From Agarophyton chilense (lineage: Eukaryota; Rhodophyta; Florideophyceae; Gracilariales; Gracilariaceae): DNA of 64,000 bases. The translations under genes were made by a program, and so were the position numbers. The DNA is taken from positions 496,001 to 560,000 of the forward strand of contig JARGXX010000095.1 in NCBI GenBank assembly GCA_030374765.1, in the 5' to 3' direction. Positions 1 to 41,645 of this stretch are shown here, piece by piece (the stretch's first letter is position 1; every line of letters starts with the position of its first letter). The notes below the pieces were generated by a model, which worked only from the letters and a program-made list of their open reading frames with translations, was not told where the DNA came from and made no database searches.

Positions 1-556
1 CACGATGGTCAATGCCGACTACTATGACCCATCGCTCCCAACGGACTCCGATGGATTCGCCCCTCTGGACCACACTCTCCTTCCGGACGATGAACATCAA
101 CCGGAATATGTGATTCAGCACACCATCTCCGCCTGTCGGGGAGAAGATGGAACTATGCGCTATCGCGTCCGTTGGTTCGGCTACACACCTGAGGAATGTA
201 CTTGGCAAGAGCCTCAAACCATTCCGGCTAAATTTATCGCCCGCTATTGGCACAGAATCAGCCAGTCAGAGCGCGGCCTTCAGGAGGGAAAAAACATTGG
301 TCCGGATAGTCCAACCATTGGTCCGAATAATCCCAAAACGGCTCCCAAACTGCCTCCCGACAAGACGGTTCGCCGGAGCACGACGGTTCGTCATAGCTCC
401 CCCATCAGGGATCAAGGTCAGTCCTTCGGAGACACCTGGGGAAGACCCGAGACGCTCTCAATATGGGACGACGTCCCGGGGCACGCACATTTCAGATACA
501 AGAAAGGCCTTGGGAAAGCACAAGCACTACTTTATTTAACTTATTCGAGTAACTAA
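1..556 (+). CDS. Chromovirus A: C-terminal end of pol with chromodomain (5' partial)
   Basis: This is the tail of a Ty3/gypsy polyprotein entering from the left edge. Residues about 34-85 of the visible part form a chromodomain: a beta-strand start (EYVIQHTISA), the core YRVRWFGY, then CTWQEP and a terminal helix ending ARYWHRI. The aromatic residues Y, W and W expected of a histone-tail-binding cage are in place. In chromoviruses this domain follows the integrase and is thought to guide integration into marked chromatin. The remaining 100 residues are low-complexity, rich in P, S and basic residues. The frame is open from the window edge to the stop at 554-556. It ends tail-to-tail with an antisense ORF that starts 347 bases further on. 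Confidence 0.85.
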   Translation, partial: TMVNADYYDPSLPTDSDGFAPLDHTLLPDDEHQPEYVIQHTISACRGEDGTMRYRVRWFGYTPEECTWQEPQTIPAKFIARYWHRISQSERGLQEGKNIGPDSPTIGPNNPKTAPKLPPDKTVRRSTTVRHSSPIRDQGQSFGDTWGRPETLSIWDDVPGHAHFRYKKGLGKAQALLYLTYSSN

Positions 557-903
557 CAGAGGCCTAACAGCCCTCGGCATGACCTGAAGGTTCGCGGAAG
601 CGCTCCGAACACCAACAGGACTCACTGGGGCGGCGCAGGAGTAGCTCCGTCGTCCTCATTGCGACCTGCCGCAGCGAAACCGGGACTAGGGTCACCCGAG
701 GACCCAATTGGACCACCTGAACCGGCCCCAGCGAGCCGAGCACGCTTCTTCGGCGGAGATTCACCTGAGGAACTATTGTCACCATCGGAAACCTCCCGGT
801 CACTCTAATTGAGACCATACCGGGCATCCAAGTCGGCAGTAACACTTTGGTATATCGCCCACGCATTCTGCTGCAGGATATTGACCATGGTGGTCTTCAG
901 GTC
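557..903. other. Spacer between pol A and the antisense ORF; nothing recognised
   Basis: I see no domain here. It may hold the 3' untranslated ends of two convergent transcripts, one from pol A and one from the antisense ORF. Confidence 0.4.
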
Positions 904-2730
904 CTAACCCTGTTGAACAACCGCGGCGTAGCGAACAAAGCGACGCGCACTGGAGCAGGCTTCCCTCAGGACTGTCGCACTGTGCATCGAGGCCGTAATA
1001 CCAACGGTACGGCAGACATGACGGAGAACCGCGGCTGCCGCAGTGACCAAAGCAGGAAAGTGTACCAACGGAGAGGACGGAGCGATGTCGACGCCCCCGG
1101 TGAACGTTTGAGAGAGTGCCTCGCCTACAGGAATTTCAGTTTCGAAAGTAACCTCGTCAGGAGGAGTATTCACTTGGGCGACGGGCGGCTCATACGAGAG
1201 CTCATCCTGAGGAGCAGCGCCCGGAGGAGCCGGAGGAGGGGAAGCGGTCGGCAACACCACAGCGGAATCGACCGGAGGATGAACGCCCTCCACGGGTAGG
1301 ACAAAGGGATCTCCACCGAAGAATTCTCCGTCGGACATACCAGCAGGAACCAACGCCGTGGCTTCCACATCAGGCTCTAAGCACAGAGGATCGAAAGCAA
1401 TGGCCTTCGGATAATAGTCGGGCACATGACGCCTCGGAATGTCCTATGGTTGATTCCTCAAAGGCTTGGCGGGATAGGCACGAGCGTCGTCCCGACCCTG
1501 AGGATTCAGCTGAATCGGCGTGAATGAGTCGGTATCCCAGTCATACCAAAGGAACCCGGGATTCTTGCCCCTCTCCACCTGTAGGACATGGTCCAGAAGG
1601 GCCTCGGTCTCCTCCACGTCGAAATTAGACCCACGGACGATATTCTGGATGCCTAGGTTCCTTATGAAGCGGATCATGATGTCTGGGAGTGGGATTAGGT
1701 GACCTAGAGGACCGCGTATGTTCTCATCGTACCACACCTTCCAATCCTCCGAACGGACATTACCACGGATTCCGTACTTCGCGGTATCCAGAAAGGCCGT
1801 AAGGGACATCCCGCCGAACTCAACGAATAGTAAATGCCAGGACAGCGACGACCTTCGGTTATTGTCATCGCCCATGAGTTGGGAGGACTGGTACGCCACC
1901 ACGGACTGCGTGGGGACCAGAAGGAGGAGCGACGCTCGCCAATACATGGCCCATTGGTTATCATCTTTGTGTGGAAGCGAAAGATATAACGGAAGACGTT
2001 TGTCTCCGCTAATGTCGTGGAACTCCAATTGGTGCCAACAAAAGAAGAACCTCAGGGATTGACGCAGACGACCTTCGGGCTCGTGCATCTCGTTCCAATA
2101 GACCCGATTGGAGATCCAGAATAAGTGGTCGTACGTTGGCCAGAAGCACATAAGCGCCAAGAGGTTGTGACCAGCCGGAGGAAAGCGCACATGGGGCGAC
2201 ATGAAGTCCGTGTTTAGGTCCGAAAGGAGTTTGTTCACCCTGAACTGGTAGTCAGCTTCCTCGTCGCAGCTGACGTACGGCATGTCTGCTTGGATGAGAG
2301 TGCGACATCGCGTCGCCGAACACGGATCCATAGGACAATGCAACCATCGGTTGTACCACGAGACGCTGCGCGCGTTTTTGCTGTCCCTCTGGAAGTCGGG
2401 TATCTTGGCAAACCTTCGGGAGTCGAGATACATATGGCAAAACCTTTGGTATTCTTCCACAGAGAACGGAAGAACGGCATGACGCACTGCCCGCGGGTTT
2501 CGTCCGATGGTATGTTCATAGCGGTCCCCAGAAGGTTCGTAGGCCACTTGGCATCCCGAGGAGCTCCCCGCTCGGTTGTTTGAAGTCATGGTACCGCTGG
2601 CCCCAGGTTGGTCCGCCGGGAAATATATGGGAGAACCGACGAAGGCGACATAGTCCGAAGGAAGTATGGCGTATCCGACGGGCATATAAGGCGGGTACGC
2701 CATCGCGCGCGACCAATGAAAAAGTACCAC
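904..2730 (-). pseudogene. Chromovirus A antisense ORF (third gene), one internal stop
   Basis: This is a long minus-strand reading frame lying inside the sense-transcribed element, downstream of the chromodomain. It reads 428 residues from 2730 (or from the MAYPPYMPV methionine at 2703) to a TAG at 1444-1446, then continues in frame for about 180 residues to 904. The TAG is explained by CAG to TAG. The N-terminal two-thirds look globular and rich in W, Y and F; the C-terminal third is proline- and acid-rich. It shares position, strand and several blocks with the antisense ORFs of elements B and D: GFLWYDWDTDSF here matches GDFVWYDPWTRQ in D, and a WHLLFVEF block matches WAVVYTEF. I do not recognise the family. 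The function is unknown, and a role in the element's life cycle is only inference. Confidence 0.6.
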
Positions 2731-3101
2731 GATGGAAAAACGACGTGACGGAATCGACCCGGACGGACTGACAGGCGTGAACCACGGTGGACGAAGCGCG
2801 GAGGGTCAATAAAGGAAGAACCGAGACTAAGGAAGAAGCCAATGGACCGTCTCGGCAACGCGACGCAAGGAATACGCCGGCGATGCCCCTATGGCCAGCG
2901 CTCACGGCGCGTGGGAGTTTCCGTCCCTAGGCAAATTAATTGCACTTCGGCGACAATGGTCAGCTCACGCTTCCCCGCATCCCTGCAGGCGGTGACGAAG
3001 CGACGTCCCGTCGCGTCCAATGGTACCGGGAGCAACAAAGTGCTCGCGTCCCCTGGGTCAATCAAGAGGCCATCTGGACTCCGCCATGACGGCCGAATCC
3101 T
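2731..3101. other. Leader of the antisense ORF; nothing recognised
   Basis: This stretch lies between the antisense ORF start and the polypurine tract. If the antisense gene is transcribed, its promoter or 5' leader would lie here or in the adjoining LTR. No clear motif is seen. Confidence 0.35.
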
Positions 3102-3116: not shown

Positions 3117-3941
3117 TGAAGGAGCGATGATAACGGTTGAGCCCTGTAAGCCGTCGGGCCCTGAGGTATCTTAGAGGCGAGAAGTGGACGGGTCGACCTT
3201 ACGTGGTCTAAGGTAGATTATTATTTTATTTTAATTAGTGTAATAGATTATCATTACAGTGCCAGGGAGTTCTCACCGCCTCGCCAGTACTATTTACTTG
3301 GCTCGAGTGACGCTTCTCCCTTAGAGTACGGTAGGCACCGTTTGGATACTAAATGACCCCCTTTGGTATATTAGTTCCACCCTTTGGTCTTCAAGCCATC
3401 CTTTCCGTAGCTCCAACCTGTAGCACTACGCAGTAAACGCTAGCCCATTGCACCAAGTACTCTGGGAGTGCCGCCGTCAAGGATTCGAACATTAGGACCC
3501 GCTCTACCACGCTACCACCGGTCGAGACCCGTGCGCTGACCCCACAGTCATTGCGTTACAGTTCTGCGTGTGATACTGTGGGCCCCAACAGCGAAGCACA
3601 CCATTTTCTCCGCATAATATCGTTTCAGTTTGGATGAACCAAACAACTTCGACGTCGCACTCTTTTGAATCGAAATTATCTTCGTAAAGCCCGTACGGAT
3701 GAGCGGTGGAATGATCAATCAAAATGAATAGCTAGCTTCATAAACGTGGTTTCCTACGACGTGGGCATTTTTACCGCTTGTGTGTTGTTATGAATATTGC
3801 CCCTACTGGCGGAGCATCATTGACCGAAGGACTGGTCGTGCGCGCGAGATGTACACGTTTGCGCCCAGAATTTCCTTTCAGTTTACATACTTTATATGCA
3901 TTATTTCTAATAAAGTTGGGAGTTTACTATAGTCTCCTACA
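3117..3941 (+). repeat. Putative 3' LTR of chromovirus A
   Basis: The sequence begins TGAAGGAGCG just after the polypurine tract and is proposed to end at AGTCTCCTACA, giving imperfect inverted termini like those of LTR B (TGAAGGACAA ... TTGTCCTACA). An AT-rich stretch at about 3208-3240 sits where a promoter region would be expected. The 5' partner LTR is outside the window, so the right boundary is a guess from the inverted end alone. A minus-strand match to a tRNA T-arm (GTTCGAATCC, 3490-3481) lies inside. Confidence 0.45.
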
Positions 3942-7839: not shown

Positions 7840-8657
7840 TTAACGGCACCAAAGCGACGCTTTTTGGTCAGTCCAATATGCGATTGTTACACAACGTTCT
7901 GGGGCGTATAGTGGTTCACGGGAAGGCCTTGAGTATATTGTGGGTGGGAGCGGGGGTGGGGGGGGAGGGGGGGGGGGGGGGGGGGGGGGCACTACACCCG
8001 ACCAGTTTGGGACGCGGGGTTGCATCGGATAATCATACGACGGTGGCTGGTACATTGCAATACGCGCATTTGGTGGATACGTTGGGGTTGTATGAGGCAG
8101 AAGAGGGTGCGGGGAGTGAACGCGGTTTGAAGGCTTGTCCGAAAATGGAGTGTTAGGGCGTAGTTGTTTTTCCAGGTCAGCAGCTCGATGGGCTTCCGCC
8201 CCTTTAGCTGCCAAAATTCGATCGGCCTGCGAACCATATTTCTACTGTTTCTCCGCATCCTTTTCGAAAGCGTACTGAACAGTGACAGGAGTGTTACAAA
8301 CGTATTGACCATTCATTGCTGCTATAGAAGCATCGAAGTGCTCGAAGCAGGAGTACTTAACGAAACCATATCGTTTCGAATGGTTGGTGTTTGGGTCTTG
8401 CGTGGTAAATGGCGCTTCCACCCAGAAGCCAAACGCTGAAAAAGCGTCATGCAATAATTTCTCGTCAACTTCGTCCACCAAATTGCCAATGAAAAGGTTT
8501 GCGCCGACGTTTTGGGTGCCACGATCCACGGTAGACTGAGAGTTACGATTTGGTTTTGAATAAAGCTGGACAAGATTGAGCACCTTTGAGGAGTAGAGGG
8601 CGTCTAGTGGGGTATAAAACTCACAAGAAACGCAGCGAAAATGCTCGCCTGTGCACA
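7840..8657 (-). pseudogene. SF3B4: SF3B4-like (SAP49) splicing factor, 3' part: end of RRM1, RRM2 and Pro-rich tail
   Basis: SF3B4 is the U2 snRNP SF3b subunit that contacts pre-mRNA near the branch point in the nucleus. This part starts at the cut in RRM1 (GEHFRCVSCEFY..., matching the family's RNP1 strand), then reads YSSKVLNLVQLYSKPNR and a linker. RRM2 follows with RNP2 (ANLFIGNL), EVDEKLLHDAFSAFG and RNP1 (KRYGFVKYS), ending MNGQYVCNTPVTVQYAF. A TAG at 8242-8244 (KDAEKQ*KYGSQADRIL) interrupts an otherwise continuous frame that runs through a Pro-rich tail, including a poly-Pro run encoded by the G tract on the plus strand. The 5' part lies 33 kb away at 41646-41750, because chromovirus C sits between them. 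The gene cannot make full-length protein here; an intact copy elsewhere is likely if the gene is essential. Confidence 0.85.
7952..7989 (+). repeat. G-rich tract (poly-Pro codons on the minus strand)
   Basis: The run contains 23 consecutive G after a few interrupted G blocks. On the minus strand it encodes the poly-proline stretch of the SF3B4-like tail. It could form a G-quadruplex, and its length is prone to slippage and assembly error. Confidence 0.8.
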
Positions 8658-9291
8658 TGTCGTACAATCACCTCTACGGTATGCTACTGTCTTGTCTCGG
8701 GAGCGTAGTGACGCTCAACCGTAGGGAGCGTGGTGACGCTCAACCTTAGAAGGTAGACGTAGTAAACCTCGATGGCACCAGGGCACCGTGAAAACCCGCA
8801 GGGGCAAACGGCGGGGCGACTAGCCTATACCGTGTAGGTAAACGATGGTAGGCGTCGATGCGCAGGAAAGCCTGTGTGGTAGTTGAGAAACAATAAACCA
8901 AAAGGTATAGTCTTGACCCAAGTGATGCCTGTCTTTATCAGATAATGATGGGGGAGGTGCAGTTCCCTATATGCAGTGAACTGCACTCTCCAGATCACCC
9001 GGGAAGTGCCAGCAAGGCACGGTCTCTGACCCAGTGTCAGAGACCTGGCCAGCACTGGCTACAGTGCCAGGTGGCCACTCAACTACTGTACTAAATTACG
9101 CATAATTACAATTACTATCACTAACAATTACTCAACCAGAAGGTACATGTCAACACTACACGTGGCTGAGAAAACCTAGACGGTAGCTCGCCCAGAGCCA
9201 CGTGGCCGATGATTCCTCGCACCCATCACCTACAAGGTCAGCGTAGTGTATCGGACACCTCAAAGGTCAGCCCTTTCGCCACTATACGACA
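8658..9291 (-). repeat. 3' LTR of chromovirus C
   Basis: A 634-bp LTR with termini TGTCGTAC ... TATACGACA, whose ends are inverted repeats of each other. It matches 41013-41645 nearly base for base. It abuts the SF3B4-like exon on its left. Between that exon and the LTR lie four extra bases (CACA on the plus strand) not expected from a clean target duplication. Confidence 0.92.
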
Positions 9292-9303: not shown

Positions 9304-10395
9304 ACCCACGAGGCACGCCCCGTGTCTCCCTTCATCACACCATAGAGTTGTAGCGAGCGATAGCGGCGCGGGCACCAGAGTAGTGTCTGGGCGCGGCTCC
9401 GGATCCCTTGAGGTTCAGAACTCGGCGCCAGTATCGGTTGGGGGAGGGCGCGCGACAACGTCGGCCCACGAATTGAGCGACAACCACTCAAGTAGGGACT
9501 ATCATGAGGGCGATGCAGTGTACCTAGCACGCTCTCGGACACCTTTTTGGTAGTGGCCCTGCTTGCCTGCGATTCTGCTTCCGCATCGCCCACTGTCTAA
9601 TCAAGTGGGTATCGCATCCTTCCCGGTTCCTTCAACTTCATTCTCCTCCTAGGTCCCAGCGCAGCGCCGTCCCGCCTGTTCGTTCCCACGGCTCGACAAC
9701 CCTTCAGGTAGTACTGCCTTTAATTGGCGGCGTCGCGACCGTAACCGTACTGTCCGGCTTTTCCCTGAATGTTTCCTGGCTTCTCGACCTTTCAGGTCTC
9801 GTCTACCTTGTAAAGATGGACTCGTGGCGCCGGTGGGGCCTGAGCCTGCGTCGATACAACAATTGACGTGTTGGCCTGGGTCCGTGATGGAAGCTTCCGG
9901 TTGTGAGACCTTATTGGTGTTGAGCGGCCCCGTCGGTAATTACTCGACCTTTTTCCGGTTTTGCATTCCGGTTTACCCTCAAGGTAATGACAGGATCGCG
10001 CCACCTCCGCGCACGCGTTCGAACCCTGCAGTTTTGCAACCTGCTTCGGCCGTTCCGTTCGTTCAGCCTCTTTTGGTTTCGACTCCTCTCCCCAGTGGCG
10101 GGGCTACCGCTCCTTCGCTACCTCTTCGGTTGGTGGCTCCTAACATTTCCGCGGGTCTTCCTCCGTGGGTAGTCAATAACCCGGGTATTCCTGATTCCAT
10201 TGCTCCTAAACCGACAGGTCCTTTTGAAAGAAAATTTTTGTCTCTTTTACTGTTACATTCGGTTGTTCTTTCGTGTCCTCCCTTGTAGGCAATCTGACGC
10301 ATATGCGTCCACCTTCTGCGGAAAACGACGTATCTTCTCTCTCTTCCTTAGGCCTGAGTACCACGAAGGTCTAAGGTTAGCCGTCTGCAGGCATC
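9304..10395. other. 3' region of element C without a recognisable antisense ORF
   Basis: In elements A, B and D the equivalent interval is about 2.1-2.6 kb and holds a long antisense ORF. Here it is only about 1.1 kb. The plus strand has a Pro-rich frame at 9824-10288, but I could not match it to the antisense ORF blocks. C may have lost the gene or never had it. Confidence 0.45.
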
Positions 10396-12159: not shown

Positions 12160-14851
12160 TCTATTTTCGAAAAAACTAGTAAAACTCGCTGGTTTCCATA
12201 CTGCAGCGGCGTATTCTATTTTCTAAGTAAAAAACTAATTTTCTAACCATGTTCCTCCTGCTTTAAAGTACATACCTTAGACAGTTGTCTTCAGTAGCAG
12301 CAGCTCAGTGGTTTCAAGACCGCTCGGAGACTGATAAAAACAGAGTTTAAACCTCGCTGAGTTCAGTGTAACTCGAAACCTTCTACGGGAGCTCGACTAA
12401 TTCTAAAAATTATTTTGGTCTAAGAACGCATTTGCGTCCACTTGAACAGCAGACAGAATAAGGTGACATATGCTAAAGGGATTGTTTCGTCAGAGACCAT
12501 AATATATCTACCAAGTTGAATAACGCGGATTGAATTAGTAGGGGGCTTAAGGAAATTTGAACTTTTGCTTTATACTTTTAAAAGATGCCTCTAAAAAGCC
12601 TTAAAAACGCATGTTGACACACGAACGTCAATGTTGTTGACTAAATGTTGCTCGAAATGTGATGAATGTCACGCAGATGATCTATAAAACACTCCTGACC
12701 GGTTTCACTGTGACATATATAAACATCCATATCATTGTACTTTTTGCAGTCTGAACAAACAAATTTGGATTTTTAAGTGGTCTTGCAGACTTTGCTTCGT
12801 CCTTGATATGTTTGAAACGTCAAAGAACCATCCAATTTCCTTCCTTTTCGATTGGTCTCCATTAAATGAATGCCGGTTCTAGCCATATATGGGTTTTCTA
12901 TTTCATCTTCCTCCTTACATTTTCTTTTCATAGTTCGAATAGCATCCCAGTTGTTATCTATTAATTCGTCTGCGAGATTACAATAGAAATTATGCGCTGT
13001 AAGATTCAATGTGTTTCCGTATGCACTCTCGTAAAGAATCCAAACATCAACCACGCACATTGCCAGCAAAGAAGTATTCACTTTGAAAGACCATTTTTTC
13101 CCTTCAAACTTCTGGAATAGCAATGGAAAGCGGAATTTTCTTTGTTATTCCATCAGTTGTCCTCCATCTTTCACGAGAAATGGGAGTTCCTGGTTGGGTA
13201 CTGCTACAAGTGCTGATGAAATATCTCCTCTCGCCGTCCACCCGGAGCACAGACATCAACTTTCGATCCAATTCAGGAAGTTTCGAAACCATTGACACGT
13301 GCTGGCCTCGTGCCGTCATCGTAAGTTCGGAAAGATTGTTAATAGGAAACCTTCTGGTGGCTGTTTTTACGACCCCAATAAATCGCATTCCTCTTTTTAA
13401 AAGTTCTTCAGCGGTTTCAACACATGCAAAATATGAATGGGCACAAACGATTCGATCAGTTGCGAACCAATTTTCAACAAGTCTCATTAAAACAGCTTTT
13501 CCATGTGCATGTTCTGATTCAAAAGGCTGTACATCTGGTTGCGTAGCTCCGATCGTGATTTCTATTTTGAGAATAGTTCCACTCCTTCCACAACACACTG
13601 TCTTTAATTCACAACCATTTTCAGGTTTCCTATCAAGAGCAGTGTAGTGTGGAAGTCCAATTTCAATCCAGTTCCCTCCAAGTCCATACCAACGTGACAT
13701 ACTTTCGTCCACGCACAAAGTGTGTGACGGAGTTACGAACGCTTTCCGATGGTCATTTATAGCTTTCAAAAACTCATAAATGCATGACCATCTGCATTCT
13801 TCTGATTTTTGATCGTTTTCAGAGCCACTGAAAACGATGAATTGCCGTATATGTTCAAACATATTTCGTGACATGATCTTTCCGAGCTGCGGAGATTCGA
13901 TATATTTAGAGAACTTGTCTTTAGACCAAAGCGATCTTCTATTTGAAAACTCGAAGCGTGTCATTAACACCATCAAACCGAAAAACTTCAAAATTTCACC
14001 TCCTGTACTTTGCTTTAAGCCTTTTTCTTCGAGCCGAGAGTTGGTAGATCGAACTATTTTTTCCAAATGAGCTACAGGAAACATCCACATGAAGAAATCG
14101 TATGGAGGGAGTCCCGAAGGTGCATGAATGGCGGATATAAAATCTCCTACAGGTCCCGTGACTTTCCATTGATGCATTTGCACTGGACCATTCAGAGTCA
14201 AGGATACATTTTCAGTTGTCCATTTCGTCGAATGACCTTCCACAAAGCTGTATTGCGTGTCACTGTTTGTCACAGTAGGAGGGCTCAACGGATTCATTGT
14301 GTGACATTGATCGCCATCCGTGACAGTATTTTGCTCTTCATTGTTCGAAACTTCATTAGTAATAGCAGCACCATTTATCTCCACGTTGGAATTGATGGCT
14401 TCTTGAGCAGTTTCCTGAACCGTGACATGATCGCCGGCTTTTACATTACAAAGTTTGAGAGCGCATATTTTCTTGCGACCAGGTAGCTCGAAGTTCATCG
14501 TGACAAAAATGTGTCTCCGATTATTTTTGACAACAACGTCCACTTTTGTAACACTTCCGCTGACCAGTTTCGTTTTCCATTGCGTGCCAAAGAAGTGTTT
14601 ACAGTCGCTCTCTGATGTGGTGAGACGTGCGCGGGTATGTACTCTGTTTCCCACTACACGACGGGGATCCATAGATGATGAAATATTTGATAAATTATGA
14701 AAGATTGAAGTAAAGATGATGTGTTTACAGGTTGTGGACGATCGTCCGTGATATTTCAGGTTGACGCCAGAAGAAGAGAGTGTTGAAAACGTCTAGGCAC
14801 AAAAATTTAAGGAAATTGACAAAGTTTACAAGAATTATCGATGTTGTAATT
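12160..14851 (-). mobile_element. piggyBac-like insertion within element C pol
   Basis: This 2.7-kb insertion carries a piggyBac-family transposase. It is bounded by the 21-bp direct repeats rather than the usual TTAA. I found no matching inverted repeats directly inside the direct repeats. 12160-12770 and 14675-14850 are AT-rich and non-coding. Confidence 0.65.
12773..14672 (-). pseudogene. piggyBac-family transposase (DDE_Tnp_1_7), frameshifted, catalytic Asp lost
   Basis: The first frame (14672-13104, 522 residues) has an N-terminal region with a chromo/Tudor-like segment, then the DDE_Tnp_1_7 core: GDFISAIHAPSGLPP, FFGLMVLMTRF, and the first catalytic Asp block SHTLCVDESMSRWYG. The second block reads IVCAHSYFACVETAEELL, where the family has an Asp before SYF; here it is His, so catalysis should fail. 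The C-terminal part (13123-12773), with LAMCVVDVWILYESAYG, lies in another frame, so one indel near 13110 breaks the gene. It resembles the PGBD4-like group. No TTAA target duplication is present. Confidence 0.82.
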
Positions 14852-16022: not shown

Positions 16023-16906
16023 TCAAGGACAATGCCCTTCAAGGGAGTTTCTTCGCAGGACTTAGAGGTTTCGCTCGCTTGAGGGATAGCTTGGGCTATG
16101 ACAAGCTATACCGCTATTGCGTGGTGACGGCCGGTTAGGACCGGAAGTGCACACGGGTGGAACACGTTGACTGCACGGATGCCAACGCTCGAGTACGAGG
16201 CGTGCCACACGTGGCCCGGATTGTACCTAATGGTTAGTATTATTTAGTAATTTTTAGTATTTATTTAGCTACGCTATCGCTATTTAGTGTCTGTTTTTCG
16301 GGCGCGCGTCCACTGTCAGGGGCCGCGCGCCACACTACTTAGGACGTTGAGCACTGCTCCCCAGTAAAAACCCTCTTGGGAGACCAAGGAGATAGTCTTG
16401 GCTCTGAACTCTTCGCCTTCGGCGCGTCTTCACCCCATACTGCGTGAGCGCCCGTCGGACGTTAGTTCATCCACCCCTCCGTCTACCAGAGTGCTACCAC
16501 CACCGTGGGTTCATATTTAATCGCCGACACTTGTCTTAGTCTCTCCCCTGTATAGGGTTTCGCCCCCGTTTCCTCTTGTTCTTCTTTTTGGCTCTCGTGA
16601 GTGGCCGCACCACTCACCCCGCTCGTCCACCTCATACGAGTGTTTCCTCGCTCCTTTTCCGACAATCGCCGTGGTACCGCTCCGCCTAAGAATGGTCACA
16701 CCCGGACTTTGCCGTGCTCACCTAAACACTCTAGGTATATCCCGCCGGATTGGCCTCAGTCTTACACCCGACTCCGTCGTCCCTTTCCAGAGCGGCTCTG
16801 TTTCTGTGCTCCGCTGGGACGCGTCTCCTCCGCCTGAGGCGTGTCTCTCAAGAGAGGAAGATCCCGAACATCTTCGTGGTGTCTCCGCTCCAAGCGTTGT
16901 CCTACA
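16023..16906 (+). repeat. 5' LTR of chromovirus B
   Basis: Begins TCAAGGACAATGCCC (the 3' copy has TGAAGGAC) and ends GCGTTGTCCTACA. An AT-rich promoter-like stretch lies at about 16238-16290. It matches 26258-27144. Confidence 0.92.
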
Positions 16907-22100: not shown

Positions 22101-24142
22101 GGCGGTTTTGTACCGATTGCCCTCGGAACCGTGTCAAACTCCGCCGTCATGCGACGAAGTTGAAGCTGTTTCCAGCTCGCGCTCCATTGGAGTTTGTGGC
22201 CATCGATATACTCGGTCCCTTCCTTACCACTAAGCGGAATTACAAGTTCTTGCTTGTAATTACGGATCGCTTCTCCAAGCTGGTCCGGACCGTACCGTTA
22301 CGGAAGATCTCCGCTATGAGCGTGGCACAAGCCTTCGTCCTACACTGGATCGTCGTCTACGGTCCACCGGTCCACCTTCTCTCCGATAACGGGAGACAAT
22401 TCGCCTCTCGTTTCTTCGAGGATTTGTGTCGCATCTTGGACATTAAGAACCTGTTCACGACCACTTACCACCCCCAAACTAATGGGCAGGCCTAACGGTT
22501 CAACCGGACATTACTTGCGAGACTCTGTTAATACGTTGCAGACCACCCCAAAGATTGGGACTTGTTCACTGATGCGCTCACCTTTGCGTACAATACGCAG
22601 GTGCACAGGACAACTGGATTAACGCCCTTTGAGCTGGTACTGTCCCGTACCCAACCGCCGGTGGCGCTGGAACCACAGCCCAGGCTGGATACCTTTCCGT
22701 CACCGACTGCTTACCGCGAAGCGTGGAAAACTTGGCTCACGAAGCTCGTTCCCGCCGCACGGCGTTCAATGAGCCGAGCCCAGGCCGCTTACAAGCGTGA
22801 CTTTGATACAAAAGCAGCTCGCTCGCCGCCACGTCCCGCCCGCGACGGGTATGTATTCATCCGCAAGGAGTATTGGAACCCAGAGAAGGAGAGACGCCAC
22901 AAGCTGTCACCCGTGGCCGACGGCCCCTTCCGGGTTATTTCGGTGGCTCCCGACAGTGTCGTTTTTGACCTTGCTGGTAATTACGAACGCATCACCCGCG
23001 ATCGCGTGGTATCGGCTCCTCCGCCGTTAACATCCCAACCTACTGGTCTGACTGCTCCCGTTGAGACGGATACATCGACCCCCTTACCCCAGGTCCACCC
23101 GCGTCCCTACGCGTTACCACACCCATCTCGGGGTTTGTCTGACCTTCCGCTACCCGCGGCGCCCAACCGGCAAGGTATCGTGTCGCGCTTTCGTCGCTCC
23201 TCCCCAGTCCACCCGACGGACACCAACGCCGGTGCATTGTCTAAGGAGGGGGAGGCGCCAGACAGCCGTCGTAATCCGGTCGATACCGTCGCTGGAAACG
23301 CCGCACCGTCGCGTGTCATTGTTCGCCCATCAGGGGTGCCTGATACCGACGTCTTGCACAACTCGACGCAGTCGCTATCCAAGCCTCAGAACGCAACTGT
23401 AGATAACGCCACCAACACTCGCCGAGGTGTCACCACACGTGCAATACGGAATGCAAATGCGCTCGACGCACTGCAGCCTGATACAGTACGAGTGGACGAC
23501 GCACCACCAAGTACCCCGCACAGGGAGGCGGATACATCCACGGCGCTGACGCCGGACAGCCAGCCATTGGAACGCTCACGTGACTACACGGAACCTCGCC
23601 GTGGGACAGAGAGGTGCGACAATGCGCCACCGCCCCAGCGAATATCACCGCCGAAGCGAGCTTCACCACGCCGATTAGCGGAACGACCACCCGGGTTACC
23701 CGTCTGTGTGGGCCCTCCAACCGGAGTGGGAAGCGCCGAAACAATCCCGGCACTTGGGGAAAGTGAACCACCGAATTCGGGTCGACAATCCCCTCAGCCT
23801 AGGACTGCCTTGCGCGCTAAACGGTCCGACCGAGGCGAAGCCGCCCAACGCGTGATCACTTCGGTACCACCGGGCTCAGGACAGGTACCACCCGGAAATA
23901 GCGACACCGTCATACAGGATGGCCGGGAAGTGTACCGACAAGAGTTTGTGGTCGGACGCATTCTGGAGCACACCTACCACCCAAAGGATTATATCCAATA
24001 CTTGGTCTGTTGGTACGGGTACGGCCCCGAATGGGGTTCAGACGAACCAATAGAGCACCTGCCTCGGTCAAAGGTGGTACAGTATCATTGTCGTACTGTC
24101 ACGGCTTTGCCGGCTACCATAGACCGAGCCCAAGTGGGATAA
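19135..24142 (+). pseudogene. Chromovirus B Pol: protease, RT, RNase H, integrase, chromodomain
   Basis: The protease has VLDTGAGPNF and the flap-side FGCDFCDRF. RT shows WASPVVLAPKQDGSWRFCVD, YRRL, MPFGVTNSPATFQ and YLDDIVVF; RNase H shows TVDTDASDYQVG and FTDHASLRWL. Integrase has an H2C2 region, AIDILGPF, SDNGRQF and HPQTNGQA. The C-terminus has a chromodomain (QEFVVGRILEH, YLVCWYGYG, HLPRSKVVQYHCR). Damage: TAG at 19378-19380, TGA at 20164-20166, a frameshift near 22010 in the zinc region, TAA at 22493-22495 replacing the catalytic Glu of integrase, and TAA at 22529-22531. Pol is in the -1 frame to gag. The stop at 24140-24142 lies 212 bases from the end of the antisense ORF. Confidence 0.92.
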
Positions 24143-24354
24143 GAAGACACACGGTGGGGATAAAGGAACATAAGATCTGGATAAGGACACTTGGAAGAAG
24201 GAGAAGATGCACAGAAGACCTGGAGAAGGACACTCAGAAGAAGTGGAAGAGAAGGAAGAAAACAAATACGTCATAGACGTAAGCAGTATACTATTTTCGA
24301 AGTTGCTGCACACACTACCGCACAGCGGGATATACTAACCAAGATCAAAAGGGA

Positions 24355-26276
24355 TTAGTTGGAAGAACCCGGATTGCCGTGCGCGCCAACCGATTCGCTA
24401 GCGAAGTTACTCCCGCCGGTCAGGCGTGCCACGAGGGTGTCTCTCATCGCACCGATGTCGCCGCTCGCCGCTTGCGCGTTCAGTCCAACACCCCGAAGGA
24501 ACTGCGTGATAACGACCGCCTCTGAGAGTATGGGAACCTCGATAACTTCCGGTTTGTCTGGCAACGCCGCCGCCACTGGATCGATGACTGCACCTGCGTG
24601 AGTCACTCCCTGCGCCGGCTGCACCGTAGTATCGGCACCATCGGGATCTCCAACGTCTTCCATGACCTCGTCGCCACGGTATTCGCCCGCCTCCTCCAGG
24701 AGATCATCACCGCCATAGGGGTAGTAGAAGTCATCCGAGTTGACAAACCCCACGGGGTGCCCGTATGGTATGCCTCGCGGAGCCATCCAGGGTGCCGACG
24801 CCTCCGCCTCGGAGATCTCTTGCTGCTCCCATGGATTAAAGAAGATGAAATCTCCCGCCAACGGCGTGCGACGCCCCGGAGACCGATCAGCCCCACCGGA
24901 TTCTTGACCACGGCCGCTCTGCGGGACAGGCACGACAGCCCAGTCGACCCGCCCAATGATGTCGATTAGCTCCTGAGCTTCATCAGCGTTATTGACACCT
25001 CCAAGAGGGACTTGAAGGTCCAGCTGCTCGATGTAACCACGCAAACGCGGAGGAATATACCACAGTCGATACTGGTCGTAGGCTTCCCACAAGATGTACG
25101 CCGTGTCGCGGACTGCCCGTTCGGTTAGGACCACGGACCATAAGCCGGAGTGCGGATCCTCGATGAGATACGAGCCCAGATAGGAGACGACTGGAGGCAA
25201 CTCCACGTAACATCCCCGGCACACCTCGACGGAGGACCACCACTCAGGCAGGGGAACGTATCGCCCGAACTGATAGAAGGGACTAATCCGGGTTATCCCG
25301 TGTTCTGATAAGGGACAAGGAACCCAAAGCGGGATCTGCCCCAACGCTCCACGCGGATGAAGTTCTGTAACCACCGATATCGGGACTCACGACGAAGGTG
25401 ACGGAACTCGGCACGAATGATCGGACGGACCCAGAAGATCGCTTCTTGACGTGCTCGCGGTTGACCGCGCCATGCGTAAGTTTCCAACGCCGCAAGGCGG
25501 TCACAATAGCCGATCTCACCTTGAGTCCGGTACATCCGTAGGTCGAAGCCGAATTCGTCGGGGATGGGGTTTTGGAAGTTTGCCCGGTTGATCTGTGAGT
25601 AACCGATGCGGACGAATATACAATGCGCCTCTTCCGTCGACTCGCGCTTTCGCCGCAGAATCGCGTGAACGGGAACCGCCACACGGCGTCGCCAGTCCCA
25701 CGAAGTGGTGATCAAAGCCGGCAGCTCGCCCGGGAGACGCGCATTGCCATCAGCATACGCGGCCACGAGTTCTTCGTCGAAGACCGCTGTCGGATGGAAC
25801 CACGGAGCTCTCCGGAGAATCGCCGCATGTTGACGCGGGTTTAACCCCACGAGTTCGTCGTAACTGGGCCAGGTACCCTCCGCCGGAGTGATGTGGCTTG
25901 AAGCTTCAACGGGACCCCGGGATTGGCTCGGCGCAGTTGACGAGGCACTCCTTCGCGGAAGGGGAGCCGAAGGGAAACCGGAGAAGTAACCCCGGCGGGG
26001 ATTGTTACCACCGTTCATCGGGAGAACTGGTCGCCGAGGTATCGGGATGTGGTCGCGGGAAGTCGGCGTACGATGCGGAAGAGCGCTCGAAGTTCGACGA
26101 GTGTTTACCGCGTTGGTGCGTTTGTCGTTCGGTTGTGCAGCTCTGCCTTTGACAGTCCAGTGGTCGCTGGACGCGTTACGCGACTCGCTCTTATGCCGGT
26201 TGGACCGTTGCCTTCCCGCCATTTCGACGGCGTGTTCGTCACCTAAGGAGGGGGATATGAAGGACAATGCCTTCAA
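24355..26276 (-). pseudogene. Chromovirus B antisense ORF (third gene), one frameshift
   Basis: The minus-strand gene has two overlapping frames: 26276-25293 (N-terminal half) and 25374-24355 (C-terminal half), joined by one indel near 25300. The likely start is the MAGRQRS methionine at 26222, 35 bases outside the 3' LTR. The N-terminus (about 150 residues) is basic, Ser/Pro-rich and disordered. A globular region follows with APWFHPTAV, IIRAEFRHLRR, RSRFGFLVPYQ, FGRYVPLPEWW, CYVELPPVVSYLGS and ILWEAYDQYRLWY. The tail has SPGRRTPLAGDFIFFNPW and an acidic end. Matching blocks occur in element D's antisense ORF (APWFDPVAI, LLRAEFRFLRK, RSRLGYLVPYQ, CPVELPPAISYIGS). I do not recognise the family, so the function is unknown. 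Confidence 0.72.
26244..26255 (+). other. Polypurine tract of element B
   Basis: AAGGAGGGGGA lies immediately before the 3' LTR and would be the plus-strand primer. Confidence 0.8.
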
Positions 26277-27144
26277 GGGGGTTTCTTCGCAGGACTTAGA
26301 GGTTTCGCGCGATTGAGGGATAGCTTGGGCTATGACGAGCTATACCGCTATTGCGTGGTGACCGCCGGTTAGGACCGGAAGTGCACACGGGTGGAACACG
26401 TTGACTGCACGGATGCCAACGCTCGAGTACGAGGCGTGCCACACGTGGCCCGGATTGTACCTAATGGTTAGTATTATTTAGTAATTTTTAGTATTTATTT
26501 AGCTACGCTATCGCTATTTAGTGTCTGTTTTTCGGGCGCGCGTCCACTGTCAGGGGCCGCGCGCCACACTACTTAGGACGTTGAGCACTGCTCCCCAGTA
26601 AAAACCCTCTTGGGAGACCAAGGAGATAGTCTTGGCTTTGAACTCTTCGCCTTCGGCGCGTCTTCACCCCATACTGCGTGAGCGCCCGTCGGACGTTAGT
26701 TCATCCACCCCTCCGTCTACCAGAGTGCTACCACCACCGTGGGTTCATATTTAATCGCCGACACCACTTGTCTTAGTCTCTCCCCTGTATAGGGTTTCGC
26801 CCCCGTTTCCTCTTGTTCTCTTTTTTTGGCTCTCGTGAGTGGCCGCACCACTCACCCCGCTCGTCCACCTCATACGAGTGTTTCCTCGCTCCTTTTCCGA
26901 CAATCGCCGTGGTACCGCTCCGCCTAAGAATGGTCACACCCGGACTTTGCCGTGCTCACCTAAACACTCTAGGTATATCCCGCCGGATTGGCCTCGGTCT
27001 TACACCCGACTCCGTCGTCCCTTTCCAGAGTGGCTCTGTTTCTGTGCTCCGCTGGGACGCGTCTCCTCCGCCTGAGGCGTGTCTCTCAAGAGAGGAAGAT
27101 CCCGAACATCTTCGTGGTGTCTCCGCTCCAAGCGTTGTCCTACA
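26258..27144 (+). repeat. 3' LTR of chromovirus B
   Basis: An 887-bp copy of 16023-16906 with the proper TG start. It ends TTGTCCTACA, followed by the CCAAT duplication. Confidence 0.93.
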
Positions 27145-28044: not shown

Positions 28045-28712
28045 TGTAGTATTCTACTATGTCGGGGAATCCGATAGGATGATTTTTCGCGAAGTCGCGG
28101 TTGGAACTCATAAGTGAGTGATATCATCAAACTTGTGATATGAAACGGCACACCGCGTAGGGTGCCAGGAGGCAGGGTACATTAGTGGAACACGTGGTAT
28201 CACGAGTAAAGTGGCTTGCAACGGCGCATGTAGTGGAGATCCACGTGGTTGGTTTTACTACCCTTTGTAGATGTAAGTCCATAAGGGACCATATCCATAC
28301 AGTGGTTTGGCTAAGTGGCTGACCACTGGGTATTATTTATATATTTATTTGGGCACTCACCCTGGCACACAGTATATAGTGCACCAGAGGTGAGCGCCGA
28401 CTCCAAGTAAAGGAGACAACATGGGCATCATTAATATTCTGTTCCTCGCTTAGGATTACTTAACCGGAGATCCGGACGAGCTATAATAGATAGTCAGCCC
28501 CCAACCACTTCACGAGCCGTCTCGTACCTACGTTCCATCAACGTTTTACAGTTGCACTGTTCACCCTCGCTGGCGAGTAGTGGCCTTACACCCCACTTCC
28601 AGCTCGCTGGTGTTGTAGCTCTACCACCCCTTTTCCTTCGCCGCAAGCGACCCATCAGCAGTCCGAACGCTGTCGCAGGTGTCTGCTCTCTCCGTTAGAG
28701 CGGATACTACAA
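28045..28712 (+). repeat. 5' LTR of chromovirus D
   Basis: Starts TGTAGTATTCTACTATG and ends GCGGATACTACA, with 8-bp inverted termini (TGTAGTAT / ATACTACA). An AT-rich TATA-like stretch lies at about 28330-28350. The copy is at 37454-38120. Confidence 0.92.
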
Positions 28713-34753: not shown

Positions 34754-35365
34754 ATGGAACCTGAAAGCAGGAAAGATGTTTTGGACTTTGGCTCCAAGGA
34801 CTTGGAAACGAGTGCACGCGAAAACGCGCCGATGCCGCTTCAGGCTGAACCGTCAGGTGAAGCGCCACTCGCTGTTCCGCCGATATCGGCTCCCATCCCT
34901 CGTGGGCAGGAAGAAGAAGAGGTATGGCCTTCTGTCGTGGTGAAAGCACCATCGTCCACCGAACAGCGGTCAGAATCGGATAAACCGAAGGAAGTTCATC
35001 CACGAATGGAATTGAGAAGCAGCAAGAATTACGCTTCTATGGAACCTGGAAAACATGATAGCTCTTTATCAGCCCTAAGGCATTTCAAACCTGTTAACAG
35101 GAGTCTCGCGCCAACAGCGAAAGCATTGGGAAACGCCCAGGAATATGTTATGGATCGCATATGTGAACATGGAGAGCATGAAGATACTGGAGAATTACTG
35201 TATCGAGTCCGATGGTACGGTTTTCCTCCGGAGGCGGATACGTGGGAACCTATAGCTCATATCCCCCGTTCGCAACTCGTGCAATATCATCGACGCATGC
35301 GATTACCACTCCCCAGGGAGATCGACTCCTCGATAGTCGGGCTCATGGGCACATCCCTTTTCTAA
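34754..35365 (+). CDS. Chromovirus D: C-terminal pol segment with chromodomain
   Basis: In frame with the last integrase segment after a single TAA, and opening with ATG. The first 130 residues are low-complexity and acidic/proline-rich. A chromodomain follows at about residues 132-190: EYVMDRICEH, LYRVRWYGF, ADTWEPIAHIP, QLVQYHRRM. The aromatic cage positions are kept. The stop at 35363-35365 lies 414 bases before the end of the antisense ORF. Confidence 0.88.
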   Translation: MEPESRKDVLDFGSKDLETSARENAPMPLQAEPSGEAPLAVPPISAPIPRGQEEEEVWPSVVVKAPSSTEQRSESDKPKEVHPRMELRSSKNYASMEPGKHDSSLSALRHFKPVNRSLAPTAKALGNAQEYVMDRICEHGEHEDTGELLYRVRWYGFPPEADTWEPIAHIPRSQLVQYHRRMRLPLPREIDSSIVGLMGTSLF

Positions 35366-35779
35366 GTACGGGCTACCAAGGTAGTAAAATCTCGAATGGC
35401 GAGAAGAATACAAGAAGTCATGTGGAAGAAAAGTGAAAACAGGCAAGCACAGGACATTTACTAATTATCTTCTAAGAAGAACTCGAGAAGCGAGAAGAGA
35501 GGATTGAAGAACTCGAGAAGCGGGAAGAGATGAAGACTAGAAGATAAGAAGGGAACGTGAAGACACGAAGTCAGCGGAGTTTTATTGGTATCGAGATATC
35601 ACCGCAAGGGTGTTGACTAGGAGTCTTTTCTAGGATCATCAAGGAGACGTGCGAGCACGCAGGTTCGCAAGAAGCTGTGCGCGATCACCCTCAACTTGGT
35701 CAACGGGAAAGCCCGCATCTAAGAGGAACTGCCTCAGCGGATCCAAGCCTGGATCTCAGACCGGCACTGCACTCGGTTG
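35366..35779. other. Spacer between convergent pol D and antisense ORF D
   Basis: Purine-rich, with repeated GAACTCGAGAAGCG-like words at about 35480-35540; no gene is recognised. Probably the shared 3' untranslated region. Confidence 0.4.
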
Positions 35780-37429
35780 TTAGGTAGACCCATGAGAGAA
35801 CTCTTGAGCAACTCCCGCCACTGCGGATTGATCGACGGAAGTCGCTACGCCTGCCAGCTCTGGCTCGTCCTCGTAACCGAGTTCAGCCTCAGCTCCTGGC
35901 GCTTCCTCATACGGTTCCTCTCCGTTCTCGGATGGAGTAGCATCGTACACGTATCCAGTAAGCTGGTTCGGTGGCATGTCACGCGGGTTCTCCCGAAGAA
36001 AGCGAGCCTGCTCGGAGGTGATCAACTGGCGCGTCCAGGGGTCGTACCAAACGAAATCTCCAGCACTTTCTGTTCGTCCAGGAGAATGGTCGTAGTGTCT
36101 TGCACGGTTTCAGCGAGCGGATTGATCAGCTGGCACTCCAGACCAATCGACACTGTCGATCAAATCCACAAGATGGAGGAAGTCGGCATGGTTCGAACGG
36201 GATCCCAGGACAAGGGAAAGATCGAGTTCTCTCGCATACTTTCGCTCTGTGGGCCAAACTCTAAGGGTATCATAAACATCCCACAGGAGGAAGACGGCCA
36301 TCTTGGCTGTAAACTCGGTATAAACCACCGCCCAATATCCCGAGAACGGGTCGTTAACCAACGCGGACCCGATGTAGGAGATCGCCGGTGGGAGCTCCAC
36401 AGGGCAACCACGAGGACTCTCGATCGCCGCCCAATTCTCCGGAATACCGATGTAGCGCCCGAAGCGCGCGTTCCGCCGGATGCGGTCAATCTCGATCATT
36501 TGATACGGCACCAAATAGCCCAAACGTGATCGAGTACGACGTTCCCAACGAGGATAATCCCAATAGGGAATGTCATGCTTTCGAAGGAAGCGGAACTCCG
36601 CACGGAGAAGAGGTTGCTGAAAGCAGAGAGCTGCATCACGCACACCGCGCACACCGCGCCAACCGCTAACATCGACTTCAACGAGTGTCTCGATATACGA
36701 GTAACCTTCACCGTCGGTACTGGCTTTCCAGGTATCTAGTTCCCAGTCCTGCGGGAGGAGAACCGTACTGATGAATCGGTGAAGACGCTTGTAAATCAGC
36801 TTGGTGAACCGCGTACGGGCTTCGGACAAGGTTTCCGTTGAATGTCGCGCAATCGAGTTGTCTGGAAAAGCAATATGGCTCGCCCAGTCGTCGCTATAAA
36901 TCGCGTGTTCCGTAATACCGTCAGGGAAATACCCACCGTGTACATACTGTTGTATCAACGCGTCATCGCGGATAGCAACTGGATCAAACCACGGCGCTTG
37001 CGCCAAGAGTTCAACGTTGTCAAGAGGATCTCGTCCATAGAAATCCGCAGGGTGCGGGTAGCTCCACTGAGAACGACGAGAAGGAGCTCGAATCACACCC
37101 GCAGAGGCGACGTAAGCCGCGTTTGGCATCGGAGCCCGGAATCCGGTGTACGGTGTGGGGAACGAACGGTATGGACCGAGTTGAGCAGTATGCTGCGACG
37201 CATAACCAGCAGTGTTGGAAGGAGCCCCAGAAGGCACATCCTCAGAGGAGGGCTGAAACGGGTTGGACCCGGCGTTCGGATTCATCGCGAGAGATCGAGC
37301 TGAAGAGCGTTGAGAAACAGAATGCTGTTGAGAACTGTAAGAGTTGGTCGGGCAGCGAGGAATTCGTGATGACGATGAGTACCCGGAACACCGGTCCGAC
37401 TGCGTATAAACGCTTCTTGCGTCCCCCAT
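35780..37429 (-). pseudogene. Chromovirus D antisense ORF (third gene), one internal TGA
   Basis: 439 residues read from 37429 to a TGA at 36110-36112, followed in frame by about 110 more residues to 35780; CGA to TGA explains the stop. The N-terminal 120 residues are Ser/Pro-rich and disordered. The globular part contains QAPWFDPVAI, LLPQDWELDTW, PLLRAEFRFLRKHDIPYW, RRTRSRLGYLVPYQ, FGRYIGIPENW, CPVELPPAISYIGS, GYWAVVYTEF and FLLWDVYDTLRVW. After the stop comes HSPGRTESAGDFVWYDPW, then an acidic tail. All these blocks recur in element B in the same order, so the frame has been under coding constraint in the past. No known domain is recognised. It starts 24 bases from the 3' LTR. Confidence 0.72.
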
Positions 37430-37453: not shown

Positions 37454-38120
37454 TGTAGTATTCTACTATGTCGGGGAATCCAATAGGTTGGTTTTTCGCG
37501 AAGTCGCGGTTGGAACTCATAAATGAGTGATATCATCAGCATTGTGATATGAAACGGCACACCGCATAGGATGCCTAGAGGCAGAATTTCTTAGTGGAAC
37601 ACGTGGCGTCATGGGTCGAGTGGCTTGCAACGGCGCATGTTGTGGCCATCCACGTGGCTGGTTTTACTACCCTTTGTAGCTAGACGTCCATTAGGGACCA
37701 TACCCATACAGTGGTTTGACTAAGTGGCTGACCACTGGGTATTATTTATATATTTATTTGGGCACTCACCCTGGCACACAGTATATAGTGTACCAGAGGT
37801 GAGCGCCGACTCCAAGTAAAGGAGACAACATGGGCAACATGACTATTCTGTTCCTCGCTTAGGATTCCTTAACCGGAGATCCGGACGAGCTATAATAGAT
37901 AGTCAGCCCCCAACCACTTCACGAGCCGTCTCGTACCTACGTTCCATCAACTTTTTACAGTTGCACTGTTCAACCTCGCTGGCGAGTAGTGGCTTTACAC
38001 CCCACTTCCAGCTCGCTGGTGTTGTAGCTCTACCACCCCTTTTCCTTCGCCGCAAGCGACCCATCGGCAGTCCGAACGCTGTCGCAGGTGTCTGCTCTCT
38101 CCGTTAGAGCGAATACTACA
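37454..38120 (+). repeat. 3' LTR of chromovirus D
   Basis: Starts TGTAGTATTCTACTATG and ends GCGAATACTACA; it pairs with 28045-28712 and is followed by the TCTTC duplication (38121-38125). Confidence 0.93.
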
Positions 38121-41009: not shown

Positions 41010-41012
41010 AAA

Positions 41013-41645
41013 TGTCGTACAGTCACCTCTGGGGTATGCTACTGTCTTGTCTCGGGAGCGTAGTGACGCTCAACCGTAGGGAGCGTGTTGACGCTCAACC
41101 TTAGAAGGTAGACGTAGTAAACCTCGATGGCAACAGGGCACCGTGAAAACCCGCAGGGGCAAACGGCGGGGCGACTAGCCTATACCGTGTAGGTAAACGA
41201 TGGTAGGCGTCGACGCGCGGGAAAGCCTGTGTTGTAGTTGAGAAACAATAAACCAAAAGGTATAGTCGTGACCCAAGTGATGCCTGTCTTTATCAGATAA
41301 GGATGGGGGAGGTGTAGTTGCTTATATGCAGTGGCCTGCACTCTCCAGATCACCCGGGAGGTGCCATCAAGGCACGGTCTCTGACCTAGTGTCAGAGACC
41401 TGGCCAGCACTGGCTACAGTGCCATGTGGCCACTCAACTACTGTACTAAAATACGCATAATTACAATTACTATCACTAACAATTACTCAACCAGAAGGTA
41501 CATGTCAACACTACAGGTGGCTGACAACACCTAGATGGTAGCTCGCCCGGAGCTACGTGGTCGATGATTCCTCGCACCCATCACCTACAAGGTCAGCGTA
41601 GTGTATCGGACCCTCAAAGGTCAGCCCTTCCGCCACTATACGACA
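41013..41645 (-). repeat. 5' LTR of chromovirus C
   Basis: A 633-bp partner of 8658-9291 with termini TGTCGTAC ... TATACGACA. It directly abuts the SF3B4-like RRM1 coding sequence on its right. Confidence 0.93.

What the first reader, a model, noticed from the sequence alone, without database searches (positions are those of the whole stretch)
24355..26276. Conserved antisense third gene in three different chromoviruses (A, B, D)
Seen: elements A (904-2730), B (24355-26276) and D (35780-37429) each carry a long minus-strand frame between the chromodomain and the 3' LTR, tail-to-tail with pol (gaps 347, 212 and 414 bases). B and D share ordered blocks such as APWF.P, RAEFR.LR, R.G.LVPYQ, FGRY, VELPP..SY.GS and AGDF....PW although their LTRs differ; A has a more diverged version with GFLWYDWD. 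Known: antisense or extra ORFs occur in a few plant LTR elements and an antisense gene in HTLV-1. Inference: this is an element-encoded antisense gene family of about 600 residues with a disordered N-terminus, a globular core and an acidic tail. I recognise no family, so it may be undescribed.
Basis: partly seen in the sequence, partly recalled or inferred. Interest (0 to 1): 0.88.

Follow-up and report, generated by a model that had tools for sequence, protein, structure and literature searches.

The report
Antisense gene in red-algal retrotransposons
Virus-like jumping elements in a red seaweed genome carry an extra gene that reads backwards relative to their other genes, is kept by selection, and makes a protein that matched no described family in the libraries searched.

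Summary
Confirmed and widened. The genome looks like a gracilarioid red alga's (named protein relatives: Agarophyton chilense, Gracilariopsis chorda). Elements A, B and D each carry a homologous minus-strand gene between the chromodomain end of pol and the 3' LTR, tail-to-tail with pol. Scored copies, lower bounds: 119 B, 96 D, 98 A, 77 E; in E, 45 of 77 keep an uninterrupted frame of at least 600 codons. It is a protein gene under selection: pN/pS 0.52 (E), 0.59 (B), 0.70 (D), and third-position-biased divergence between B, D and E at 36-40% amino-acid identity. No accepted Pfam, PDB-sequence or Foldseek match. The model shows a low-confidence N-terminus, a largely confident core, an acidic linker and a C-terminal helical hairpin. 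In B, D and E the ATG lies 24-81 bp from the 3' LTR, so an antisense promoter in the LTR is likely; expression was not testable. The architecture is known (maize Grande, rice RIRE2, Retand, fungal Boty); the protein family, in red-algal chromoviruses, appears new. Likely role: nuclear accessory protein (inferred).

The parts
24355..26222 (-). Element B antisense gene (ATG at 26222), broken into two overlapping frames near 25.3 kb
   Evidence: 119 scored relatives in the genome
35642..37429 (-). Element D antisense gene (ATG at 37429), changes frame near 36.1 kb
   Evidence: 96 scored relatives
625..2805 (-). Element A antisense gene, diverged member in broken frames; true start not determined
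   Evidence: 98 scored relatives
9653..10285 (+). Element C relic of the same antisense gene (C lies on the minus strand): matches residues 1-68 and 808-874 of the 875-codon frame of a C-family copy, the 2.2 kb between them missing
22562..24142 (+). B: end of pol with a weak chromodomain match (E 0.024, below cut-off)
34754..35365 (+). D: end of pol with chromodomain (E 1.6e-8)
2..553 (+). A: end of pol with chromodomain (E 1e-6)
24143..24354 (+). B spacer between the two stop codons, purine-rich on the sense strand (0.69)
16025..16906 (+). B 5' LTR (98.4% identical to the 3' LTR)
26260..27144 (+). B 3' LTR, presumed to hold the antisense promoter
   Evidence: promoter role inferred
28045..28711 (+). 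D 5' LTR (93.6% identical to the 3' LTR)
37454..38120 (+). D 3' LTR, presumed to hold the antisense promoter
   Evidence: promoter role inferred
3117..3560 (+). A 3' LTR, matched part (90.3% identical to a stretch 9.8 kb upstream, outside the window)
8657..9291 (-). C 3' LTR (95.4% identical to 41012-41645)
41012..41645 (-). C 5' LTR

Best explanation
The frame is a real protein-coding gene carried by chromoviruses (Ty3/gypsy LTR retrotransposons) of a gracilarioid red alga. It lies antisense to gag-pol, between the chromodomain and the 3' LTR, and is homologous across five families (A-E), so it most simply predates their split. Most likely a promoter in the 3' LTR, firing towards pol, makes an mRNA whose 5' leader crosses the polypurine tract. 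That mRNA encodes a soluble protein of about 600 residues or more (disordered N-terminus, ordered core without a recognised fold, acidic linker, C-terminal two-helix hairpin) that works in the nucleus as an accessory or regulatory factor for the element. Shown: coding, selection, homology between families, position. Inferred: LTR promoter, nuclear location, regulatory role.
For: pN/pS below 1 in E, B and D with bootstrap intervals below 1; between-family codon-position bias 0.465-0.499 / 0.404-0.462 / 0.669-0.707 at positions 1/2/3; homologues at 33-89% identity in other records, 8 of 18 named, all red-algal; homology of A and C to B/D/E well above decoys. Fixed position: 39 of 73 B and 30 of 72 D reverse-transcriptase copies have a same-family antisense copy within 8 kb downstream on the opposite strand, 0 on the same strand. 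ATG 37, 24 and 81 bp from the LTR in B, D and E. No membrane-span-like stretch; acidic linker. Basic clusters of the PPKKRARL kind in the tails of L066, L067, P0022 and P0024 and a similar one in P0016; reading them as nuclear signals is recalled knowledge. Plant counterparts: GENE23 of Grande is nuclear and its antisense transcript is made (PMC7264820, sections read).
Against: No expression data of any kind. No basic cluster was tested in B, D and E, and only A-type tails and P0016 show one clearly. The core has no recognised fold, so the biochemical activity is open; hairpin matches are below cut-off. Most B, D and A copies are interrupted. pN/pS is far from 0 and at low divergence close to 1. 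34 of 73 B and 42 of 72 D reverse-transcriptase copies had no listed antisense partner, which may reflect the capped lists or real absence.
Confidence: 0.5

Rival explanations
1. Same gene, different job: the protein is part of the particle or of the cytoplasmic replication complex (for example a second structural protein or an RNA chaperone) rather than a nuclear regulator.
For: Conserved over several families at a level like a core gene; homologous ordered core. Nothing excludes it.
Against: A separate gag with a Pfam gag match exists in D; acidic linker and A-type basic tail clusters fit a nuclear protein better; antisense production uncouples it from gag-pol dosage (inference).
Confidence: 0.22
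2. Same gene, defence role: the protein counters host silencing or excludes related elements.
For: Convergent sense and antisense transcription would make double-stranded RNA, so a co-expressed anti-silencing protein would make sense (inference); the N-terminal quarter differs most among B copies (codon blocks 0-200).
Against: No domain match to a known suppressor in Pfam; no positive-selection signal was sought.
Confidence: 0.2
3. Mainly the antisense RNA matters (self-limiting double-stranded RNA), the protein being secondary.
For: Antisense RNA regulation is discussed for other elements (PMC7264820, section read).
Against: Selection acts on the protein frame, which an RNA-only function does not predict.
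Confidence: 0.05
4. Chance open frame, or shadow of a constrained plus-strand feature.
For: Sense frame 1 shows a similar dN/dS (0.66 B, 0.72 D, 0.49 E) because its third positions coincide with those of the antisense frame.
Against: That sense frame holds on average 14.6 (B), 25.8 (D) and 20.8 (E) stops per copy; the antisense frame is conserved at 33-89% identity in other records.
Confidence: 0.01
5. Envelope-like third gene.
For: Position between pol and the 3' LTR.
Against: Opposite orientation to known env-like ORFs, and the highest 19-residue hydropathy is 0.93-1.32 in three members, below the usual membrane-span level of about 1.6 (threshold recalled).
Confidence: 0.02

Closest known systems
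Antisense additional ORFs between pol and 3' LTR (aORF-3R) of plant elements: maize Grande gene23, rice RIRE2, Silene Retand, PvRetro13 (PMC7264820, PMC11963269)
   Same: Same position and orientation; present in many copies and families; function unknown; for Grande a nuclear product and an antisense transcript are reported (sections read).
   Different: Retand ORFs mostly encode Transposase_28 (97% of clusters), for which no match was found in 22 members here at E<=1; Retand is a non-chromovirus lineage, these elements have a chromodomain; red-algal host; for Grande the promoter is given as upstream of gene23, here there is room for it only in the LTR in B, D and E.
brtn of Boty-like elements, Botrytis cinerea (Zhao et al. 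2011)
   Same: An antisense additional gene in a gypsy-type element outside plants, listed in the same class (PMC7264820; reference seen in PMC8365987).
   Different: Paper not held and sequence not compared, so relatedness is untested; fungal host.
Antisense genes of HTLV-type retroviruses (HBZ)
   Same: Antisense gene next to the 3' LTR with its promoter in the 3' LTR (passages).
   Different: No bZIP or other accepted Pfam match here; much larger protein; different element class and host (HBZ size and domain recalled).

Membership tests
aORF-3R (antisense additional ORF between pol and 3' LTR) | Lies between pol and the 3' LTR | tested here: met
   B and D by LTR pairs and pol ends; A and E by pol end and LTR side
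aORF-3R (antisense additional ORF between pol and 3' LTR) | Antisense to gag-pol | tested here: met
   39 of 73 (B) and 30 of 72 (D) pol copies with a partner, all opposite strand, 0 same strand
aORF-3R (antisense additional ORF between pol and 3' LTR) | Present in most copies of a family | tested here: inconclusive
   Hit lists are capped, so unpaired copies (34 of 73, 42 of 72) cannot be read as absence
aORF-3R (antisense additional ORF between pol and 3' LTR) | Antisense transcription | not testable with these tools
   No RNA data
Retand / Transposase_28 (PF04195) proteins | Transposase_28 domain | tested here: not met
   hmmscan of 22 members, no PF04195 at E<=1; A-, C- and E-type proteins none. 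The genome search found none, but its controls did not ring, so that search says nothing. Profile-profile comparison not done
Chromovirus (carrier element) | Chromodomain at the C-terminal end of integrase | tested here: met
   A 1e-6, D 1.6e-8, E 2.6e-8, above cut-off; B 0.024 and a C-family copy 0.012 are below cut-off
HBZ-type antisense proteins | bZIP domain | tested here: not met
   No bZIP among Pfam rows at E<=1
Envelope-like proteins | Membrane span | tested here: not met
   Maximum 19-residue hydropathy 0.93-1.32 in three members
SAP/HeH-like nucleic-acid-binding hairpin (C-terminal part) | Significant profile or fold match | tested here: inconclusive

The most novel reading that the evidence does not exclude
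Chromoviruses of red algae are ambisense elements: a clade-wide third gene, transcribed from the 3' LTR towards pol, encodes an undescribed protein family with a new fold that the elements need for replication or for escape from host control, and that has been kept since before their families split.
Probability: 0.45. Interest if true: 0.75.

Novelty: new variant of a known kind. Interest (0 to 1): 0.6.

Why it matters
Antisense extra genes in LTR retrotransposons have been described in some plant and fungal families, without a settled function. Here one is traced through five families in a red-algal genome, with hundreds of copies, clear selection on the protein and a modelled ordered core. 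That makes a countable system for asking why a retroelement keeps a gene that must be read against its own genome. It also gives a family identity to proteins that are now only 'hypothetical' or 'unnamed' in red-algal records (P0015 and the A. chilense rows).

Tried and rejected

Weak points. Copy choice is biased: for pN/pS the B and D copies are the top-scoring rows (20 of 119, 30 of 96), and the E copies (14 of 77) were all taken from the 54 rows without a stop; 12 of those 14, of equal length, were used. A loci: 8 of 98. The fall of dN/dS with dS is partly built in, because dS is also the denominator. Within E, singletons (138 non-synonymous, 77 synonymous) against shared variants (22, 20) lean towards selection but were not tested. 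The N-terminal 130 codons of E alone do not exclude neutrality (upper bound 1.01-1.12). E has no LTR pair in the fetched stretch; its LTR edge is read from the TG after the purine tract.

Literature: ten searches showed no title or abstract describing this gene in red algae; most listed papers were seen only as listings, and the library lacks most subscription papers. Seen beyond listings: PMC7264820 (outline, then text from the abstract to the origin section, and the sections on function and transcription), PMC11963269 (passages and Discussion), PMC12477816 (passages), PMC8365987 (passages). Zhao et al. 2011 was seen only as a reference.

Full report
What the window is. Of 18 protein relatives of the D frame, 7 are from Agarophyton chilense and 1 from Gracilariopsis chorda, both gracilarioid red algae; the other 10 carry no name. 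The window lies in a 79.8 Mb, 135-contig genome. It holds a nest of Ty3/gypsy elements. C (minus strand, LTRs 8657-9291 and 41012-41645) encloses B (LTRs 16025-16906 and 26260-27144, 98.4% identical) and D (LTRs 28045-28711 and 37454-38120, 93.6%). A runs in from the left (matched LTR pieces 90.3% identical).

The frames. B: 25293-26276 and 24355-25374, minus, one gene in two frames. D: 36110-37429 with a continuation in another frame to about 35642. A: 625 to 2805 in broken frames. Each faces a pol end with a chromodomain match (A 1e-6, D 1.6e-8; B 0.024, below cut-off). There the frame lies antisense to an integrase with a weak chromodomain match (0.012); the window copy lacks the 2.2 kb in between.

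Genome-wide. Scored copies, lower bounds: 119 B, 96 D, 98 A. A further family, E, was found with the G. chorda protein: 77 copies, 54 without a stop in the match, 45 with an uninterrupted frame of at least 600 codons. Of 14 E copies fetched, 12 share a 618-codon ATG-to-stop frame, and the one with flanks has a chromodomain end of pol (2.6e-8) facing the gene. Position is fixed: 39 of 73 B and 30 of 72 D reverse-transcriptase copies have a same-family antisense copy within 8 kb downstream on the opposite strand and none on the same strand. Controls: within 8 kb upstream 2 (B) and 0 (D); cross-family opposite-strand pairs 0 and 1. The unpaired copies (34 and 42) may reflect the capped lists or real absence.

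It is a protein gene. (i) Within families pooled pN/pS is 0.52 (bootstrap 0.39-0.69) in E, 0.59 (0.47-0.74) in B and 0.70 (0.60-0.84) in D; with transitions weighted, 0.57, 0.65 and 0.78. The other frames give 0.80-1.37, except sense frame 1 (0.66 B, 0.72 D, 0.49 E), whose third positions coincide with those of the antisense frame but which holds on average 14.6, 25.8 and 20.8 stops (unweighted). (ii) Between B, D and E, 481-549 aligned codons at 36-40% identity differ at positions 1, 2 and 3 by 0.465-0.499, 0.404-0.462 and 0.669-0.707. (iii) A and C belong to the same family: hhalign scores of 67 (A against the B/D/E set), 91 (C against that set) and 68 (C against A), with decoy maxima of 26, 26 and 29; tblastn of the C-type protein hits A at 1e-10 and B at 8e-5.

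The protein. The model of P0015 from 22 sequences has pLDDT 69 and pTM 0.63. Residues 1-89 (nearly all) and 453-512 are low, 90-450 mostly high with dips, and a two-helix hairpin at 518-555 is mostly confident. The linker is acidic: net -16 over residues 451-525 of P0015, -11 over 451-525 of B, -14 over 526-600 of D. The first 75 residues are net +6 (B), +2 (D), +2 (P0015). Nothing matched above cut-off in Pfam, in PDB sequences at E<=1 (one row at 7.1 with the alignment), or by Foldseek at E<=0.001. The tails of L066, L067, P0022 and P0024 carry PPKKRARL-like basic clusters and P0016 a similar one; calling these nuclear signals is from memory.

How it is probably read. The antisense ATG lies 24 bp (D), 37 bp (B) and 81 bp (E) from the LTR edge, with the purine tract in between. 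In B, D and E a usual core promoter therefore fits only within the LTR; in A the start is not known. Between the two stop codons the sense strand is purine-rich (B 0.69, E 0.68, D 0.67, C-family 0.63; A only 0.55); the B value is reached by 0.3% of equal stretches of the window. Whether this ends transcription or primes plus-strand DNA is open.

What is known. Position and orientation define the aORF-3R class (PMC7264820). Of Retand clusters, 97% carry antisense ORFs with Transposase_28 (PMC11963269). Botrytis Boty has brtn (named as a reference). The family described here shows no Transposase_28 match by HMMER and sits in chromodomain elements of a red alga. Ten library searches showed no title or abstract describing it; they cover open-licence papers only.

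Verdict. It is a new protein family in a known architectural class. That it is coding and selected is close to certain; LTR-driven antisense expression is likely; the nuclear regulatory role is my best guess, not a result.

Noticed in passing
24143-24354, 35366-35644; L052 2237-2647: Purine-rich sense-strand spacer (0.67-0.69) between the pol stop and the antisense stop in B, D and E; weaker in a C-family copy (0.63) and A (0.55). Could be a terminator zone or a second plus-strand primer site.
   Followed up: partly
13104-14672 (-): DDE_Tnp_1_7-type transposase frame (522 aa, E 1.8e-37) between the LTRs of element C.
   Followed up: no
61092-63804 (-): Frames with Ty1/copia-type RVT_2 and integrase matches.
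   Followed up: no
39396-40937 (-): 513-aa frame next to the C 5' LTR, in gag position, with only a sub-cut-off SR-25 match.
   Followed up: no
G000 contig C95:476439-477872 (-), about 18 kb before the window: An E-family copy of the antisense gene with one stop in the match.
   Followed up: no
L001-L020, antisense frame and its flanks: Among the 20 fetched B copies the antisense frame (mean p-distance 0.077) is more alike than the pol-side kilobase beyond it (0.117) and the LTR side (0.156); the copies were chosen by that frame, so this is biased.
   Followed up: partly
G000 contigs C34, C114, C115 and C19, C83, C84 among others: Several antisense copies have identical scores on different contigs, which suggests duplicated or redundantly assembled stretches and slightly inflates copy counts.
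   Followed up: no
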